36,536 bases of DNA, from the IMG/VR virus record IMGVR_UViG_3300036770_003359, positions 1-36,536 of that record; one strand, written 5' to 3'. Below are positions 1 through 36,536 of this stretch, one piece after another. The number at the start of each line of letters is the position of its first letter. Position 1 is the first letter of the stretch. Below the pieces are notes generated by a model. It saw only the letters and a program-made list of their open reading frames with translations. It did no database searches and was not told the origin of the DNA. Source of the stretch: a virus. The translations under genes were made by a program, and so were the position numbers.

Positions 1-32
1 CACCGCCCAAATCCTTTTCACGTTCTAAATAA
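1..32 (+). CDS. 3' end of the small late protein gene (second copy through the terminal repeat)
   Basis: These bases encode the last residues and the TAA stop of the gene that is complete at 36154-36441. They appear here only because the contig ends overlap. Joining the ends restores one gene directly upstream of the tail tube gene. Confidence 0.85.
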   Translation, partial: PPKSFSRSK

Positions 33-127
33 ATTCCATTATGCCAACAACAGGCGTTTTAAATTCCCGTTTGGCAGTAATACAAGTCGGAGCCGCGACC
101 ATTACTTGCCTCGTAGATGCCAATTTG
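1..127. repeat. Left copy of the exact 127-bp terminal direct repeat
   Basis: Bases 1-127 are identical to 36410-36536. The repeat starts inside the end of one tail gene and runs into the start of the next, so it does not look like a purpose-built phage terminus. An overlap of exactly 127 bp is what a k=127 de Bruijn assembler leaves when it closes a circle. I infer a circular or circularly permuted molecule with a unique length of 36,409 bp. Confidence 0.95.
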
Positions 128-8675: not shown

Positions 8676-8692
8676 TTCCTTTTGCCTTTTTG

Positions 8693-8722
8693 ACGTCTTG
8701 TTGTAAAACAGGGCGTTTTTTT
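8693..8722 (+). terminator. Strong intrinsic terminator ending the late operon
   Basis: ACGTCTTGTT (8693-8702) pairs with AACAGGGCGT (8707-8716) over ten base pairs, with G-T wobbles, closed by a GTAA loop and followed by seven T. It lies 18 bp after the endolysin stop and before the early promoter, marking the border between late and early regions. Confidence 0.88.
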
Positions 8723-8760
8723 ATGTATGTTTTATTTTTGTATAAAAACTATGTTAAAAT

Positions 8761-8793
8761 TTTGGAAATAAAGTTGTAATGTATTTACATTTG
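8761..8793 (+). promoter_or_regulatory. Early promoter, Bacteroidota-type (TTTG-N21-TACATTTG)
   Basis: TTTG at 8761-8764 and TACATTTG at 8786-8793 match the -33 and -7 elements (TTTG and TAnnTTTG) with a 21-bp spacer. Transcription should start near 8799-8801, which rules out the upstream ATG at 8779 and supports 8815 as the start of the next gene. The same architecture occurs at 18885-18917, and the 16-nt block TGTATTTACATTTGCA is shared between the two. Confidence 0.75.
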
Positions 8794-12480: not shown

Positions 12481-12720
12481 ATGAAAAAACTAACTAAATC
12501 AGACATTCCGGATGGTTACAAGTACGCCATTGTTACCGATCGAGGAAACGCGTGGGCGACAATCAAGAAGCCAACATTATATCGGGAATACAAATACGGC
12601 GTTCTTATTGATGTGTATTGGCAATTTATAGATTCTTCATCACGTTTAATCGGCAAAGGATTTGATACGTCAGATTGGCAAAACTCTTTAATTGAAGCAG
12701 ACAATGAGAAAACTAAGTAA
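12481..12720 (+). CDS. Single-copy DIPxGY...FDxxDWxNSLI repeat-domain protein
   Basis: This 79-residue protein consists of one copy of a domain of about 65 residues found five times in this genome. Landmarks are KLTKSDIPDGYKYAIV, then a G-x-A-W/Y-A turn, a KKP motif, and the end GKGFDTSDWQNSLIEA. It overlaps the next gene, whose product begins with a close copy of the same domain. Nucleotide similarity over the first 48 bases of the two genes is high, pointing to tandem duplication. I know of no named family or function. Conserved aromatic and Gly residues suggest a compact beta fold. Confidence 0.68.
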   Translation: MKKLTKSDIPDGYKYAIVTDRGNAWATIKKPTLYREYKYGVLIDVYWQFIDSSSRLIGKGFDTSDWQNSLIEADNEKTK

Positions 12721-13114
12721 ATCGGACATTCCGGAGGGTTATTCCTATGCCGCCGTTGACGCATACGGAACGGCTTACGCATTTAAGCATAAACCATTTA
12801 TAGAAGAAGGTAATTGGTGTAATTTGAATGTAAAAGATGAAATTCTTTTGGGTAGCGATTTTGACACTACTGATTGGTCAATTTCACTTATTACAAATAT
12901 TGAAACAGAATATTTAACAAGTGAGCATATCCCACCTGGCTATAAATACGCCGCGGTAAATCTTGATGGAAAAGCGTACGCCTTTAAAAGTAAGCCATTG
13001 CCCTGTTTTGATTTCTCCTGGCAAACGGTCAAAGATGATGAAGAATTTGAGCGAATTAAAGGCAATTTTGATGCAACAGACTGGCAAAATTCCCTTGTAA
13101 GTGTCGAAGATTAA
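12704..13114 (+). CDS. Two-copy DIPxGY...FDxxDWxNSLI repeat-domain protein
   Basis: This 136-residue protein carries two tandem copies of the domain. The first begins KLSKSDIPEGYSYAAVDAYG and ends SDFDTTDWSISLI. The second begins LTSEHIPPGYKYAAVNLDG and ends GNFDATDWQNSLV. I start it at ATG 12704, which aligns with the first residue of the neighbouring gene's domain and overlaps that gene by 17 bases. Nothing precedes or follows the two units, so the domain itself is the functional part. The promoter of the downstream structured RNA begins inside the 3' end of this gene. Confidence 0.68.
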   Translation: MRKLSKSDIPEGYSYAAVDAYGTAYAFKHKPFIEEGNWCNLNVKDEILLGSDFDTTDWSISLITNIETEYLTSEHIPPGYKYAAVNLDGKAYAFKSKPLPCFDFSWQTVKDDEEFERIKGNFDATDWQNSLVSVED

Positions 13115-13125
13115 TCGTATTTTTG
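13095..13125 (+). promoter_or_regulatory. Promoter of the structured RNA (TTG-N20-TATTTTTG)
   Basis: TTG at 13095-13097 and TATTTTTG at 13118-13125 match the Bacteroidota -33 and -7 elements with a 20-bp spacer. The -7 box fits TAnnTTTG completely. Transcription should begin near 13131, at the first base of the structured segment. The -33 element overlaps the end of the upstream repeat-domain gene. Confidence 0.7.
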
Positions 13126-13130
13126 CAACG

Positions 13131-13266
13131 TCGTAGGACGCGGGCGGGAACCCGTTAAAACGAGAAAAACAATATGCCTTCGGGCGCTGTGGAGCGGTAT
13201 CTCGTACGCTCTTTATTGTATCCTTTTCCCGGAGGATGCAAGCAGCGGCCGAAGGCATTTTTTTTT
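13131..13266 (+). ncRNA. Structured small RNA (5' hairpin plus three-way junction) with intrinsic terminator
   Basis: About 136 nt between a promoter and nine T. The 5' domain pairs TCGT (13131-13134) with ACGA (13160-13163) and CGGG (13141-13144) with CCCG (13151-13154). The 3' domain is a three-way junction. P1 pairs 13174-13183 with 13249-13258 (10 perfect pairs), then a G-G mismatch, then CGCTG (13185-13189) with CAGCG (13243-13247). P2 pairs GAGCG (13192) with CGCTC (13207), extended by TA/TA around a bulged G. P3 pairs 13218-13226 with 13231-13239 over nine pairs with a TCCC loop. P1 followed by T9 (13258-13266) is an intrinsic terminator. A 36-codon reading frame (13174-13284) also spans it. 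It may be a free small RNA or an attenuating leader for the replication genes nine bases downstream. I recognise no known RNA family. Confidence 0.72.
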
Positions 13267-13274
13267 GAATTTTT

Positions 13275-13589
13275 ATGTATATAGCATTTTACAAAGCAGC
13301 TCTTAATATAGGGCTTACTGATGCAGAACTACTGCTTTACATTCGTCTTTCTGATTTAACAAATTTTGGACAAAATTCTGTTGATTTAACTAATAAAAAA
13401 CTTTTAGAGCTTACTGGATGGAGCTTAGGTAAGCTGCAGCAAACTAAAAGACTCTTAAAGGAAAAAGGGATTTTAAAAACTCAACAGTTACAAGATGATT
13501 ACACAGGTCAAGTTTTTACTTATTATATCATTTGTAACTACTCACACCTTTTCCATCTTATGGAAAATAAAAATAACGAACAACTCTAA
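13275..13589 (+). CDS. Winged-helix replication-associated protein
   Basis: This 104-residue protein contains a helix-turn-helix-like core: LTDAELLLYIRLSDLTNFGQ, then LTNKKLLELTGWSLGKLQQT, then KRLLKEKGILKTQQL, which reads as recognition helix and wing. Such single winged-helix proteins often sit beside phage replication initiators. Its ATG follows the RNA terminator by eight bases, and its stop overlaps the initiator start by one base. It probably assists origin recognition or regulates the replication operon. The DNA-binding fold is inferred from sequence pattern. Confidence 0.65.
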   Translation: MYIAFYKAALNIGLTDAELLLYIRLSDLTNFGQNSVDLTNKKLLELTGWSLGKLQQTKRLLKEKGILKTQQLQDDYTGQVFTYYIICNYSHLFHLMENKNNEQL

Positions 13590-14611
13590 TGGCAGAAAGT
13601 CACAGCTTTAATGTAGCACTTGCCTGTGAAATAGGCATAAACGCCGCTCTTATGTTGCAACATTTTCATTTTTTGCAACGTGAAAAAGCCGCTAACAATA
13701 AGCAAGATATAAACGGTACTTATGTTCGCCGTTCCACTCTTGCACTAACAACTACTTACCCATATTGGAGCGAAAAAGTAATAAAAAAGATAGTATCGGA
13801 TTTAGAAGAAAAAGGACTTTTGTTCTCCGAAGTGCTGAACCAAAATAGCTATGATCGAACAAAAAGCTATACTTTGTCAGCCGGCGCACTTGCTTTTTTT
13901 GAAGGCAAAATAAATTCTGTTTTGGGCCATTGCATTGTACCAAATGGTACAATGGATAGTACCAAACAGTCCGATGACATTGTACCAAACGGGCCGATCT
14001 TAAATAATTATACAGATAATTATACAAATAATTATACAGATATTAGTAATAGCGCAAAAGCGCCTTTTTTGGGAAAAGAAGTTTTTTTAAATGTCGATGG
14101 AGAAGCGAACGGTTTAGATTTTAGAACTTACAATCAATATCTTAAATATAGAGATCGGGATAAAACAACAGTCGAAGAAAAACCAGCGATAAAAATTACT
14201 TTCAATTCAACAGAAGAAAAAACGCCTGCAAATAAAATTCCGGACGCATTAAAAAAACCTTTAACATATACGAAAGAGGATTTTTTAAATGAGCTTGAAC
14301 AAAAGGGCGTTGCGACTTGGTACGATAGTTTCAAAAACGTTTGGGGGGAATATATCCGCCATCGCAAAGAGTTAAGGAAGCCGTACAAAAGCGCAAAAAG
14401 CGCCGCAATAGGTTTTAAGGAATTGTTAGAGTTGTCAAATTACAACGTTGAAGCCGGCACGCGCCTGGTAGAACGATCTATTGCAAACGGTTGGCAGGGC
14501 CTGCACCCAGAAAAGCAAAAAGCCAAAAGCGAAGGGAAAAGCAAGATACAAGAGCAACACGAGGACTTAGTAAATTACGTAATGAATAAACGGAATCTAT
14601 TAAATGGATAA
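13589..14611 (+). CDS. Replication initiator protein with internal origin
   Basis: This 340-residue protein has an N-terminal winged-helix region (about 1-112, including YWSEKVIKKIVSDLEEKGLL). A low-complexity linker follows (about 113-165), and a C-terminal helical domain includes SAKSAAIGFKELLELSNYNV then GTRLVERSIANGWQGLHP. That C-terminal pattern is common in phage replication proteins of the DnaD/RepO-like kind. The linker is encoded by iterons and an A/T-rich triplicate, so the gene carries its own probable origin, as lambda O does. The linker residues NNYTDNYTNNYTDIS are a by-product of the A/T repeats. It should bind the iterons and recruit the replisome with the following gene product. 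Confidence 0.82.
   Translation: MAESHSFNVALACEIGINAALMLQHFHFLQREKAANNKQDINGTYVRRSTLALTTTYPYWSEKVIKKIVSDLEEKGLLFSEVLNQNSYDRTKSYTLSAGALAFFEGKINSVLGHCIVPNGTMDSTKQSDDIVPNGPILNNYTDNYTNNYTDISNSAKAPFLGKEVFLNVDGEANGLDFRTYNQYLKYRDRDKTTVEEKPAIKITFNSTEEKTPANKIPDALKKPLTYTKEDFLNELEQKGVATWYDSFKNVWGEYIRHRKELRKPYKSAKSAAIGFKELLELSNYNVEAGTRLVERSIANGWQGLHPEKQKAKSEGKSKIQEQHEDLVNYVMNKRNLLNG
13934..13992 (+). other. Candidate replication origin: iterons in the initiator gene
   Basis: Three direct 14-nt copies occur: ATTGTACCAAATGG (13934), ATAGTACCAAACAG (13956) and ATTGTACCAAACGG (13979), spaced 22 and 23 bp, about two helical turns. An inverted copy overlaps the first, forming the palindrome CATTGTACC-AAAT-GGTACAATG at 13933-13954. 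They lie in the part encoding the initiator's variable linker and directly precede an A/T-rich tandem repeat. This is the same layout as the lambda origin inside gene O. Confidence 0.75.
14004..14039 (+). repeat. A/T-rich 12-bp tandem triplicate, candidate unwinding element
   Basis: ATAATTATACAG, ATAATTATACAA and ATAATTATACAG run head to tail (14004-14015, 14016-14027, 14028-14039), 12 bases after the last iteron. There are only one or two G/C per unit, so the segment should melt easily. Being a multiple of three, it keeps the initiator reading frame. Confidence 0.8.
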
Positions 14612-18189: not shown

Positions 18190-18879
18190 ATGAAAAAACT
18201 AACAGTAAATGACATCCCGGAGGGTTATAAGTTTGCCGCAGTAGATTCTAATGGAATAGCTTATGCCTATGATTCTGCTCCAGTTTGTGATTTTGAAGAT
18301 ATTGTCTGGGATATAATTAATAAAGATACTCTTATGATAATGATAGGGTCTGGATTTGATGCAAGTGATTGGGAAAACAGCCTAATAGAGAAACAAACAT
18401 TAAAGAGGCTAACAATGAGCGACATTCCAAAAGGCTACTCTTATGCCGCTATCGATAGTGATGGCGTTGCTTATGCGTATAAAAAAAAGCCAATTTTTGG
18501 AGGTGGTTTTTATTGGTTTCGCAATACTGAAGATGTAGATCCACCAAAAGAAATAGGAGGCGGATTTGATACAAGCAATTGGAAGAATAGCTTAATAGGC
18601 GGCGATCCGCACGTAATTGAAATCTTAAACAATAAAAAGAAAAGAAAGATGGAAGGCCCAACATTAGAAAGCTGCAAATTCGAGTTTACTCAAGATGCCA
18701 ACTGTTTATCCGATTGCGGCAACATTGAAAAAATCAAAATCAGTCACCAATCTTATTTTGGCTTGGACAAAACGAAAGACGGCTTTTTCGTTCTAAAAAC
18801 AAAAGGCTGGTCTATCAATAGCGAGGATGATATTAAAAAGCTATTAGATAGAATTAGACTTGCTATGAAAAAAGAGTAG
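18190..18879 (+). CDS. Two-copy DIPxGY repeat-domain protein with extra C-terminal domain
   Basis: This 229-residue protein has two tandem copies of the domain also seen at 12481 and 12704. Copy one starts KLTVNDIPEGYKFAAVDSNG and ends SGFDASDWENSLI. Copy two starts LTMSDIPKGYSYAAIDSDG and ends GGFDTSNWKNSLI. Residues from about 150 form a distinct part with ESCKFEFTQDANCLSDCGNI, containing three Cys, and a helical end (DDIKKLLDRIRLAMKKE). The gene is more A/T-rich than its neighbours. The C-terminal addition suggests the repeat serves as an interaction or recognition module. Function unknown. Confidence 0.68.
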   Translation: MKKLTVNDIPEGYKFAAVDSNGIAYAYDSAPVCDFEDIVWDIINKDTLMIMIGSGFDASDWENSLIEKQTLKRLTMSDIPKGYSYAAIDSDGVAYAYKKKPIFGGGFYWFRNTEDVDPPKEIGGGFDTSNWKNSLIGGDPHVIEILNNKKKRKMEGPTLESCKFEFTQDANCLSDCGNIEKIKISHQSYFGLDKTKDGFFVLKTKGWSINSEDDIKKLLDRIRLAMKKE

Positions 18880-21328: not shown

Positions 21329-21338
21329 GTCCGGCCCT
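21313..21338 (+). other. G/C-rich hairpin over the stop codon
   Basis: AGGGCCGG (21313-21320) pairs perfectly with CCGGCCCT (21331-21338), and the TGA stop (21326-21328) sits in the loop. No T-run follows, so it is not a standard terminator. It may stabilise the mRNA 3' end or assist the true terminator about 45 bases downstream. Confidence 0.6.
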
Positions 21339-21381
21339 ATGAGTTTGGTAATTGTTGAATGTCATATATAATAGATTGGTG

Positions 21382-21415
21382 AAAGTAGCCGCCGTAATGG
21401 TCGCTACTTTTTTTT
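21382..21415 (+). terminator. Intrinsic terminator ending the early/middle operon
   Basis: AAAGTAGC (21382-21389) pairs with GCTACTTT (21403-21410), with an inner GCC/GGT helix and a GTAAT loop, followed by eight T. It separates the 18.9-21.3 kb operon from the operator-promoter at 21468. The 235-bp gene-free stretch 21329-21563 contains this terminator, the hairpin before it and the promoter after it; I see nothing else in it. Confidence 0.85.
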
Positions 21416-21467
21416 ATTTTAAAGCGTTGGTTTTCAATACTTAATTAAATAATGTATAAAAAAGTTT

Positions 21468-21518
21468 AAAAAAAATTGTGCAAACACTTGCACAGAATTG
21501 GAAAGCGCCTTATCTTCG
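21468..21518 (+). promoter_or_regulatory. Operator-promoter, copy 1
   Basis: TTG (21488-21490) and TATCTTCG (21511-21518) form -33 and -7 elements with a 20-bp spacer; the -7 box differs from TAnnTTTG at one base. The -33 element lies inside the perfect inverted repeat TGTGCAA-ACAC-TTGCACA (21477-21494), preceded by eight A. The whole 27-nt block 21468-21494 recurs at 22521-22547 with three C/T differences. A dimeric regulator binding there would overlap the -33 contact. Confidence 0.72.
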
Positions 21519-21563
21519 TGTTATAATTAAGACATTCAATAACACTTAAAAATTTACTTTACC

Positions 21564-36154: not shown

Positions 36155-36441
36155 TGGACAGATACCAATTTATTAAACAATGGGTAGATCAGTCAGCAGG
36201 CGGGAAAATCTATTTACCTGGCTATTGCGTTCGTTTAGGAGCAGACGCAAAGGCCTTGTTAGATCAGGGCATAATAAAACCGATTGCAGACTTTACACTT
36301 TGTCGAAAAAACGCGTTAGCGGATAACGCTTGCACGCCATTGACAGTAGAACAAGCCGCTGTCCTTGAAACGTTTGAGTCGTCAGTAGCTGACGAAATAA
36401 CAATACCTGCACCGCCCAAATCCTTTTCACGTTCTAAATAA
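36154..36441 (+). CDS. Small late protein before the tail tube gene
   Basis: This 95-residue protein contains RYQFIKQWVDQSAGGKIYLP, a Cys-containing GYCVRLGADAKALLDQGIIK segment and a Pro/Ser-rich end (PAPPKSFSRSK). No family recognised. After joining the contig ends it lies eight bases before the tail tube gene, so it may be a minor tail or head-tail component. Confidence 0.65.
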   Translation: MDRYQFIKQWVDQSAGGKIYLPGYCVRLGADAKALLDQGIIKPIADFTLCRKNALADNACTPLTVEQAAVLETFESSVADEITIPAPPKSFSRSK

Positions 36442-36536
36442 ATTCCATTATGCCAACAACAGGCGTTTTAAATTCCCGTTTGGCAGTAATACAAGTCGGA
36501 GCCGCGACCATTACTTGCCTCGTAGATGCCAATTTG
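36410..36536. repeat. Right copy of the exact 127-bp terminal direct repeat
   Basis: Identical to bases 1-127. When the contig is circularised this copy should be removed to give the 36,409-bp genome. Confidence 0.95.
36450..36536 (+). CDS. 5' fragment of the tail tube gene (duplicate through the terminal repeat)
   Basis: These bases repeat the first 29 codons of the tail tube gene at 41-454. The fragment is cut by the contig end and is not a second gene. Confidence 0.9.
   Translation, partial: MPTTGVLNSRLAVIQVGAATITCLVDANL

What the first reader, a model, noticed from the sequence alone, without database searches (positions are those of the whole stretch)
13131..13266. Phage structured RNA: 5' hairpin plus a three-way junction, with its own promoter and terminator
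The sequence shows a complete small transcription unit just before the replication genes: a perfect TAnnTTTG box, about 136 nt, then P1 and nine T. The 3' domain folds as a neat three-way junction: P1 of 10+5 bp around a G-G mismatch, P2 of 5+2 bp with a bulged G, and P3 of 9 bp with a TCCC loop. It matches no RNA family I can name. It could be a stand-alone regulator, an attenuator controlling replication genes (the terminator ends nine bases before their first ATG), or a leader with the 36-codon frame 13174-13284.
Basis: partly seen in the sequence, partly recalled or inferred. Interest (0 to 1): 0.75.

Follow-up and report, generated by a model that had tools for sequence, protein, structure and literature searches.

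The report
Covarying pseudoknotted RNA before replication genes
A small group of bacterial viruses carries a tightly folded RNA, with its own start and stop signals, directly in front of the viral DNA-copying genes; its base pairs have changed in matching pairs between relatives, so it is a genuine and previously uncatalogued RNA, probably a switch for those genes, although this has not been tested in cells.

Summary
Four relatives in IMG/VR carry the same RNA. Across four distinct sequences, 11 of 12 variable base pairs change on both sides and keep pairing; sliding the partners gives at most 2. Two elements were missed: a second 5' hairpin (H0) and a 6-bp pseudoknot between the linker before P1 and the P2 loop. 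The pseudoknot sequence differs in each of the three types but stays complementary only to its own partner. No Rfam family matches. The promoter box, the RNA and the terminator are kept while the downstream replication genes are swapped next to the start codon, and the RNA itself has been exchanged independently of both neighbours. The 36-codon frame is not conserved. Best reading: a structured leader whose terminator gates the replication operon and releases a stable RNA of about 136 nt. A purely trans-acting sRNA is the main rival. Transcription, termination and function are untested. It is a new, narrow RNA family of a recognisable kind.

The parts
13095..13125 (+). Bacteroidota-type promoter candidate: TTG, 20 nt, TATTTTTG
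   Evidence: Same arrangement in all 5 phages (90-100% identity); TAnnTTTG is the published -7 consensus (PMC7366714).
13129..13140 (+).
   Evidence: L003 and L024 RNAs differ at only two bases, and these are the two sides of one pair: C-G to U-A.
13141..13154 (+). H1: 5' hairpin, 4 bp, loop CGGGAA/CGGCAA, directly abutting H0
   Evidence: Two two-sided compensatory pairs between allele types.
13160..13165 (+). Pseudoknot strand 1 (ACGAGA) in the linker before P1
   Evidence: Pairs 13200-13205; 5 of 6 pairs change on both sides across three types; only cognate linker/loop combinations give the full helix.
13174..13258 (+). P1: 10 bp, G-G (or G-A) mismatch, 5 bp; closes the three-way junction and is also the terminator stem
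   Evidence: Invariant in all 5 copies except the mismatch partner, so covariation is uninformative; 15 perfect pairs.
13192..13211 (+). P2 hairpin; its loop holds pseudoknot strand 2
   Evidence: One two-sided compensatory pair, C-G to U-A.
13200..13205 (+). Pseudoknot strand 2 (UCUCGU) in the P2 loop
13216..13241 (+). P3 hairpin, 9 bp
   Evidence: Two two-sided compensatory pairs; one U-C mismatch in type B.
13259..13266 (+). U-tract completing an intrinsic-terminator-like element
   Evidence: At least 8 T after P1 in all 5 phages.
13275..13589 (+). First gene downstream: 104-aa DnaD/replication-initiator-like protein; start codon 9 nt after the U-tract
   Evidence: phrog_186 DnaD-like helicase loader, E 5.4e-7. 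In three of four relatives a non-homologous small ORF begins at the same place.
13589..14611 (+). Replication initiation O-like protein
   Evidence: phrog_678, E 9.8e-16.
12692..13114 (+). Upstream gene: two repeats of an IPEGYKYAAV domain; its end overlaps the promoter region
   Evidence: phrog_1972, E 5.2e-18; present upstream of the RNA in all 5 phages.

Best explanation
It is a real structured RNA of about 136 nt, and most likely the regulated 5' leader of the phage replication operon. Shown by sequence: two 5' hairpins, a linker, and a three-way junction whose P2 loop pairs back to the linker, with P1 also serving as the terminator stem; compensatory changes support all helices except P1, which does not vary; a conserved promoter box before it and a conserved U-tract after it. 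Inferred: RNA polymerase starts near 13128-13131, makes the folded RNA and usually stops at P1 plus the U-tract, releasing a stable RNA. When termination fails or is prevented, the same transcript continues, nine bases later, into the replication genes, which have no other perfect TAnnTTTG box between the RNA and their first start codon. The pseudoknot would set how fast or how firmly P1 closes, and so how often the operon is read. What tips the balance (a phage or host factor, or the pool of released RNA) is unknown. Geometrically, P2 plus the pseudoknot (about 13 stacked pairs) can lie alongside the 16-position P1 with the 8-9-nt linker joining the far ends, so pseudoknot and terminator can plausibly coexist (inference, not modelled).
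For:: 11 of 12 variable pairs are two-sided compensations; 170/172 cells paired in register against at most 92/172 when slid; the pseudoknot is specific to cognate strands, shuffle p = 1.5e-4; the RNA sits before replication genes in all five phages; similarity to three of the relatives stops within a few bases of the start codon, where a non-homologous first gene begins, yet the promoter, RNA, terminator and the short spacing persist; no further perfect TAnnTTTG on the + strand between 13125 and 17590; similar TTG-N17-23-TAnnTTTG arrangements lie just before other gene blocks (8762, 18886, 22541). Precedents: Gifsy-1 IsrK, made from one promoter either as a terminated sRNA or as a read-through mRNA, and P4 CI RNA, which controls termination ahead of replication genes (PMC4825925).
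Against: No transcript data. No antiterminator partner or conserved alternative fold was found: prefix folding puts the linker-loop helix in the minimum-energy fold of window and L005 only, not of type B. RNA type does not track the downstream gene type (type A precedes two different first genes, type B three), which argues against recognition by that gene's product. A small RNA with its own promoter and a strong terminator is equally typical of a trans-acting sRNA.
Confidence: 0.45

Rival explanations
1. A stand-alone small RNA acting in trans on a host or phage target (RNA or protein). Its place next to replication genes would be incidental, and those genes would be read by leak-through from the long upstream operon.
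For: Own promoter-like box and strong terminator; compact tertiary-looking fold; 5' hairpins as in stable sRNAs; the RNA is exchanged independently of both neighbours (L003 against L024: RNA 98.6%, upstream gene 83%, downstream 47%; L003 against window: 80, 91, 90%).
Against: Always within about 12 nt of the first replication ORF in five phages despite replacement of that ORF; no perfect promoter box between the terminator and the replication genes.
Confidence: 0.35
2. A trans-acting leader RNA of the P4 CI / P1 C4 sort: the released RNA pairs through the linker and P2-loop sequences with a nascent leader of the same type and forces termination, giving type-specific control of replication or superinfection. 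The helix scored as a pseudoknot would then be, at least partly, intermolecular.
For: The complementary segments are the most variable part of the RNA (window against L005: 15 of 16 differences lie in linker and P2 loop) yet stay self-matched; whole alleles are swapped between phages; P4 uses a leader RNA to stop transcription into its own replication genes (PMC4825925).
Against: No extra complementary segment found upstream or downstream; no similarity to the C4 or isrK Rfam models; no integrase or lysogeny gene seen among the proteins examined; an ordinary intramolecular pseudoknot explains the same covariation.
Confidence: 0.12
3. A DNA-level element (replication origin or recombination junction) whose symmetry happens to fold well as RNA.
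For: Next to replication genes; the similarity breakpoints lie at its 3' edge.
Against: The pseudoknot, H0 and H1 compensate in a way that matters only to the transcribed strand's fold; terminator U-tract and promoter box are kept; P2 loop and linker vary freely except for complementarity.
Confidence: 0.05

Closest known systems
Gifsy-1 prophage IsrK (isrK RNA)
   Same: Phage promoter, short RNA, intrinsic terminator, then genes reached by read-through of the same transcript (PMC4825925).
   Different: No Rfam isrK match; different fold; downstream genes are replication genes; host group is Bacteroidota-like rather than Salmonella.
Satellite phage P4 CI RNA / P1 C4 antisense RNA (RF01695)
   Same: A structured leader RNA at the head of phage replication genes, with complementary segments inside one transcript and control by termination (PMC4825925).
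   Different: No RF01695 match; no second target segment found; CI RNA is processed from a longer transcript, whereas here promoter and terminator frame the RNA.
Lambda 6S RNA / PR'-tR' leader (own knowledge)
   Same: Constitutive promoter, short terminated RNA, then an operon opened by antitermination.
   Different: The lambda leader is not a covarying pseudoknotted fold; it gates late genes; no Q homologue was seen here.
Terminator-controlling pseudoknot riboswitches such as preQ1-I (own knowledge)
   Same: A loop-to-linker pseudoknot close to an intrinsic terminator in a leader.
   Different: No ligand or metabolic gene association; the terminator stem is P1 itself; no Rfam riboswitch match.

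Membership tests
C4 antisense RNA (RF01695) / isrK RNA (Rfam) | Match to the family covariance model | tested here: not met
   No Rfam hit at gathering; neither family appears even at E up to 10 on 451 bases.
P4 CI-type antisense termination control | Leader segment complementary to another segment of the same transcript | tested here: met
   Linker and P2 loop, 6-7 bp, covarying.
P4 CI-type antisense termination control | Additional complementary target site flanking the RNA | tested here: not met
   No complementarity above chance in the 400 nt downstream; the upstream 365 nt was scanned without a shuffle control and gave only short matches.
IsrK-like dual sRNA/mRNA leader | Both terminated and read-through transcripts from one promoter | not testable with these tools
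   Needs RNA from infected cells.
Type III toxin-antitoxin RNA (ToxI-like) | Repeats followed by a ToxN-like endoribonuclease gene | tested here: not met
   Single unit; the downstream gene is DnaD/replication-initiator-like and changes between relatives.
6S RNA and other known bacterial RNA families | Match to any of 4,227 Rfam 15 models | tested here: not met
Bacteroidota sigma-ABfr promoter | TAnnTTTG at -7 with TTG/TTTG near -33 | tested here: met
   TTG-N20-TATTTTTG, conserved in 5 phages; start site itself untested.
Intrinsic terminator | Stable G+C-rich stem followed directly by a U-run | tested here: met
   P1 15 bp + U8-9 in all copies. The simple scan missed it because its loop exceeds 8 nt.

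The most novel reading that the evidence does not exclude
The RNA is a type-specific control or immunity RNA of tailed phages of Bacteroidota: released copies recognise nascent leaders of their own type through the hypervariable linker/P2-loop helix and stop transcription into the replication genes, and phages swap RNA alleles to change type.
Probability: 0.1. Interest if true: 0.8.

Novelty: new variant of a known kind. Interest (0 to 1): 0.52.

Why it matters
Structured regulatory RNAs of Bacteroidota phages are hardly known, and no published description of this one was found in the papers searched. Here a compact, pseudoknotted RNA that doubles as a terminator is held in front of replication modules while those modules are replaced around it, and it is itself traded between phages. 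If it gates replication, it shows how such phages could time DNA replication through transcription termination, and it gives a testable RNA switch for Bacteroidota genetics.

Tried and rejected
Rfam at gathering and permissive thresholds: no family. BLAST of GenBank phages and plasmids: only chance matches. Four DNA-pattern scans of viral contigs found the same four relatives; the other hits were unrelated sequence. A genome-contig scan gave 38 stretches, none carrying the RNA. The covariance model in Bacteroidota genomes (phylum sample of 395, then order-level samples centred on a Saprospiraceae, a Fulvivirga and a Kaistella genome, about 1,579 searches with some overlap): no hit; strict filters, so weak matches could be lost, and no positive control among them. 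Minus-strand model hits are the mirror of the near-palindromic P1, not a second RNA. Peptide leader: frame not conserved. DNA origin: rejected on the covariation. Type III toxin-antitoxin: no toxin gene. Nearby antisense targets: none above chance. L107 has a distant relative of the upstream protein but no RNA.

Full report
WHAT WAS CLAIMED AND WHAT IS THERE. The window is a virus record of 36,536 bp with a 127-bp terminal repeat, so probably a complete genome. The early and replication genes all run on the + strand. The RNA folds to -61.6 kcal/mol, z = -5.3 against dinucleotide shuffles, and is the strongest fold for its G+C in a both-strand scan of the genome. No Rfam family matches, even with a permissive threshold.

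RELATIVES. A protein search with the downstream gene gave one relative. Its DNA contains the same RNA. Pattern scans with three different segments of the RNA (5' hairpin, P2/J2-3, P3/P1) converge on four relatives in IMG/VR: L003, L005, L024 and L025. Nothing similar was found in GenBank phages, plasmids, or sampled Bacteroidota genomes. The family as known is therefore narrow: five phages and four distinct RNA sequences.

STRUCTURE SUPPORTED BY COVARIATION. In the hand-made alignment, 12 base pairs vary; 11 of these change on both sides and still pair. They lie in H0 (1), H1 (2), P2 (1), P3 (2) and the pseudoknot (5). One P3 pair is a U-C mismatch in type B. Sliding the partners by 1-4 columns drops paired cells from 170/172 to at most 92 and compensated pairs from 11 to at most 2. 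The tool count on the automatic alignment, without the pseudoknot, gives 6 compensated pairs and a covariation score that 1 of 500 shuffles reaches; RNAalifold recovers the same nested helices by itself. P1 does not vary, so covariation is silent about it. The pseudoknot was aligned by hand, so an alignment-free test was made: the best complementarity between linker and P2 loop is 6, 7 and 6 bp in cognate pairs and weaker in every crossed pair; shuffles reach the summed score with p = 1.5e-4. A clean single event is also visible: the L003 and L024 RNAs differ at two bases only, and these are the two sides of one H0 pair.

NEIGHBOURHOOD AND MODULARITY. In all five phages the RNA lies between a gene of the phrog_1972 domain and a small replication-type ORF followed by (or, in L099, fused to) an O-like replication gene. 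With G001, G002 and G003, nucleotide similarity ends at 13277-13278, beside the start codon; the first gene is non-homologous in each. The promoter box, U-tract and short distance to the start codon are nevertheless kept. The RNA has also been exchanged on its own: L003 is closer to the window upstream (91%) and downstream (90%) but its RNA is 80% identical to the window's and 98.6% identical to L024's, whose flanks differ. Between window and L005, 15 of 16 differences are in the linker and the P2 loop.

PROMOTER AND TERMINATOR. TAnnTTTG is the published -7 consensus of Bacteroides (PMC7366714). The box alone is not rare in this genome, but the TTG-N20-TATTTTTG here is conserved and lies before the RNA in every relative, and similar arrangements precede other gene blocks. 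No further perfect box lies on the + strand until 17590. The terminator is P1 plus U8-9.

MECHANISM. Shown: a structured RNA with conserved transcription signals in front of replication genes. Inferred: transcription, termination, and gating of the operon by termination or read-through. The pseudoknot crosses P1, so it could either coexist with it as a compact fold or delay it; prefix folding favours an early linker-loop helix in two of the alleles only. The leader model gets 0.45, the trans-sRNA 0.35, and P4 CI-like self-recognition 0.12. IsrK of Gifsy-1 shows that both isoforms, terminated sRNA and read-through mRNA, can work together (PMC4825925), so the first two readings may not exclude each other.

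MEMBERSHIP AND NOVELTY. It is not a member of any Rfam family tested. It works, on the best reading, like a terminated phage leader (IsrK, P4 CI, lambda 6S), with a fold of its own. New variant of a known kind; interest moderate because function and expression are untested and the family is small.

Noticed in passing
window 21329-21563: Intergenic stretch almost identical in G001: a terminator-like hairpin with T8 (about 21385-21416), then an A+T-rich region with the dyad TTGTGCAAACACTTGCACA (about 21476-21494) that looks like a repressor operator and promoter region.
   Followed up: partly
window 1-127 and 36410-36536: Identical 127-bp terminal repeat, so the record is probably a complete, circularly assembled genome.
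   Followed up: no
window 12481-12720, 12692-13114, 18190-18879: Several copies of a 65-70-aa domain (IPEGYKYAAVNLDGKAYAF...DWQNSL, phrog_1972, unknown function), single or in tandem, also multiplied in the relatives.
   Followed up: partly
window 8692-8793: Terminator-like hairpin with a T-run after the endolysin-like gene, then TATTTTTG and TTG-N-TACATTTG boxes before the recombination/replication gene block: probable start of the early operon.
   Followed up: no
window 13275-14611; L097, L098, L099: Replication initiation genes are exchanged as modules between close relatives (at least four kinds of first gene), including a fusion of the small ORF with the O-like gene in L099.
   Followed up: partly
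window 13184 and 13248: The G-G mismatch in P1 is kept (G-A in type B), while the P1 5' strand could fold on itself as GCC-UUCG-GGC using that G; possibly an early folding intermediate.
   Followed up: partly
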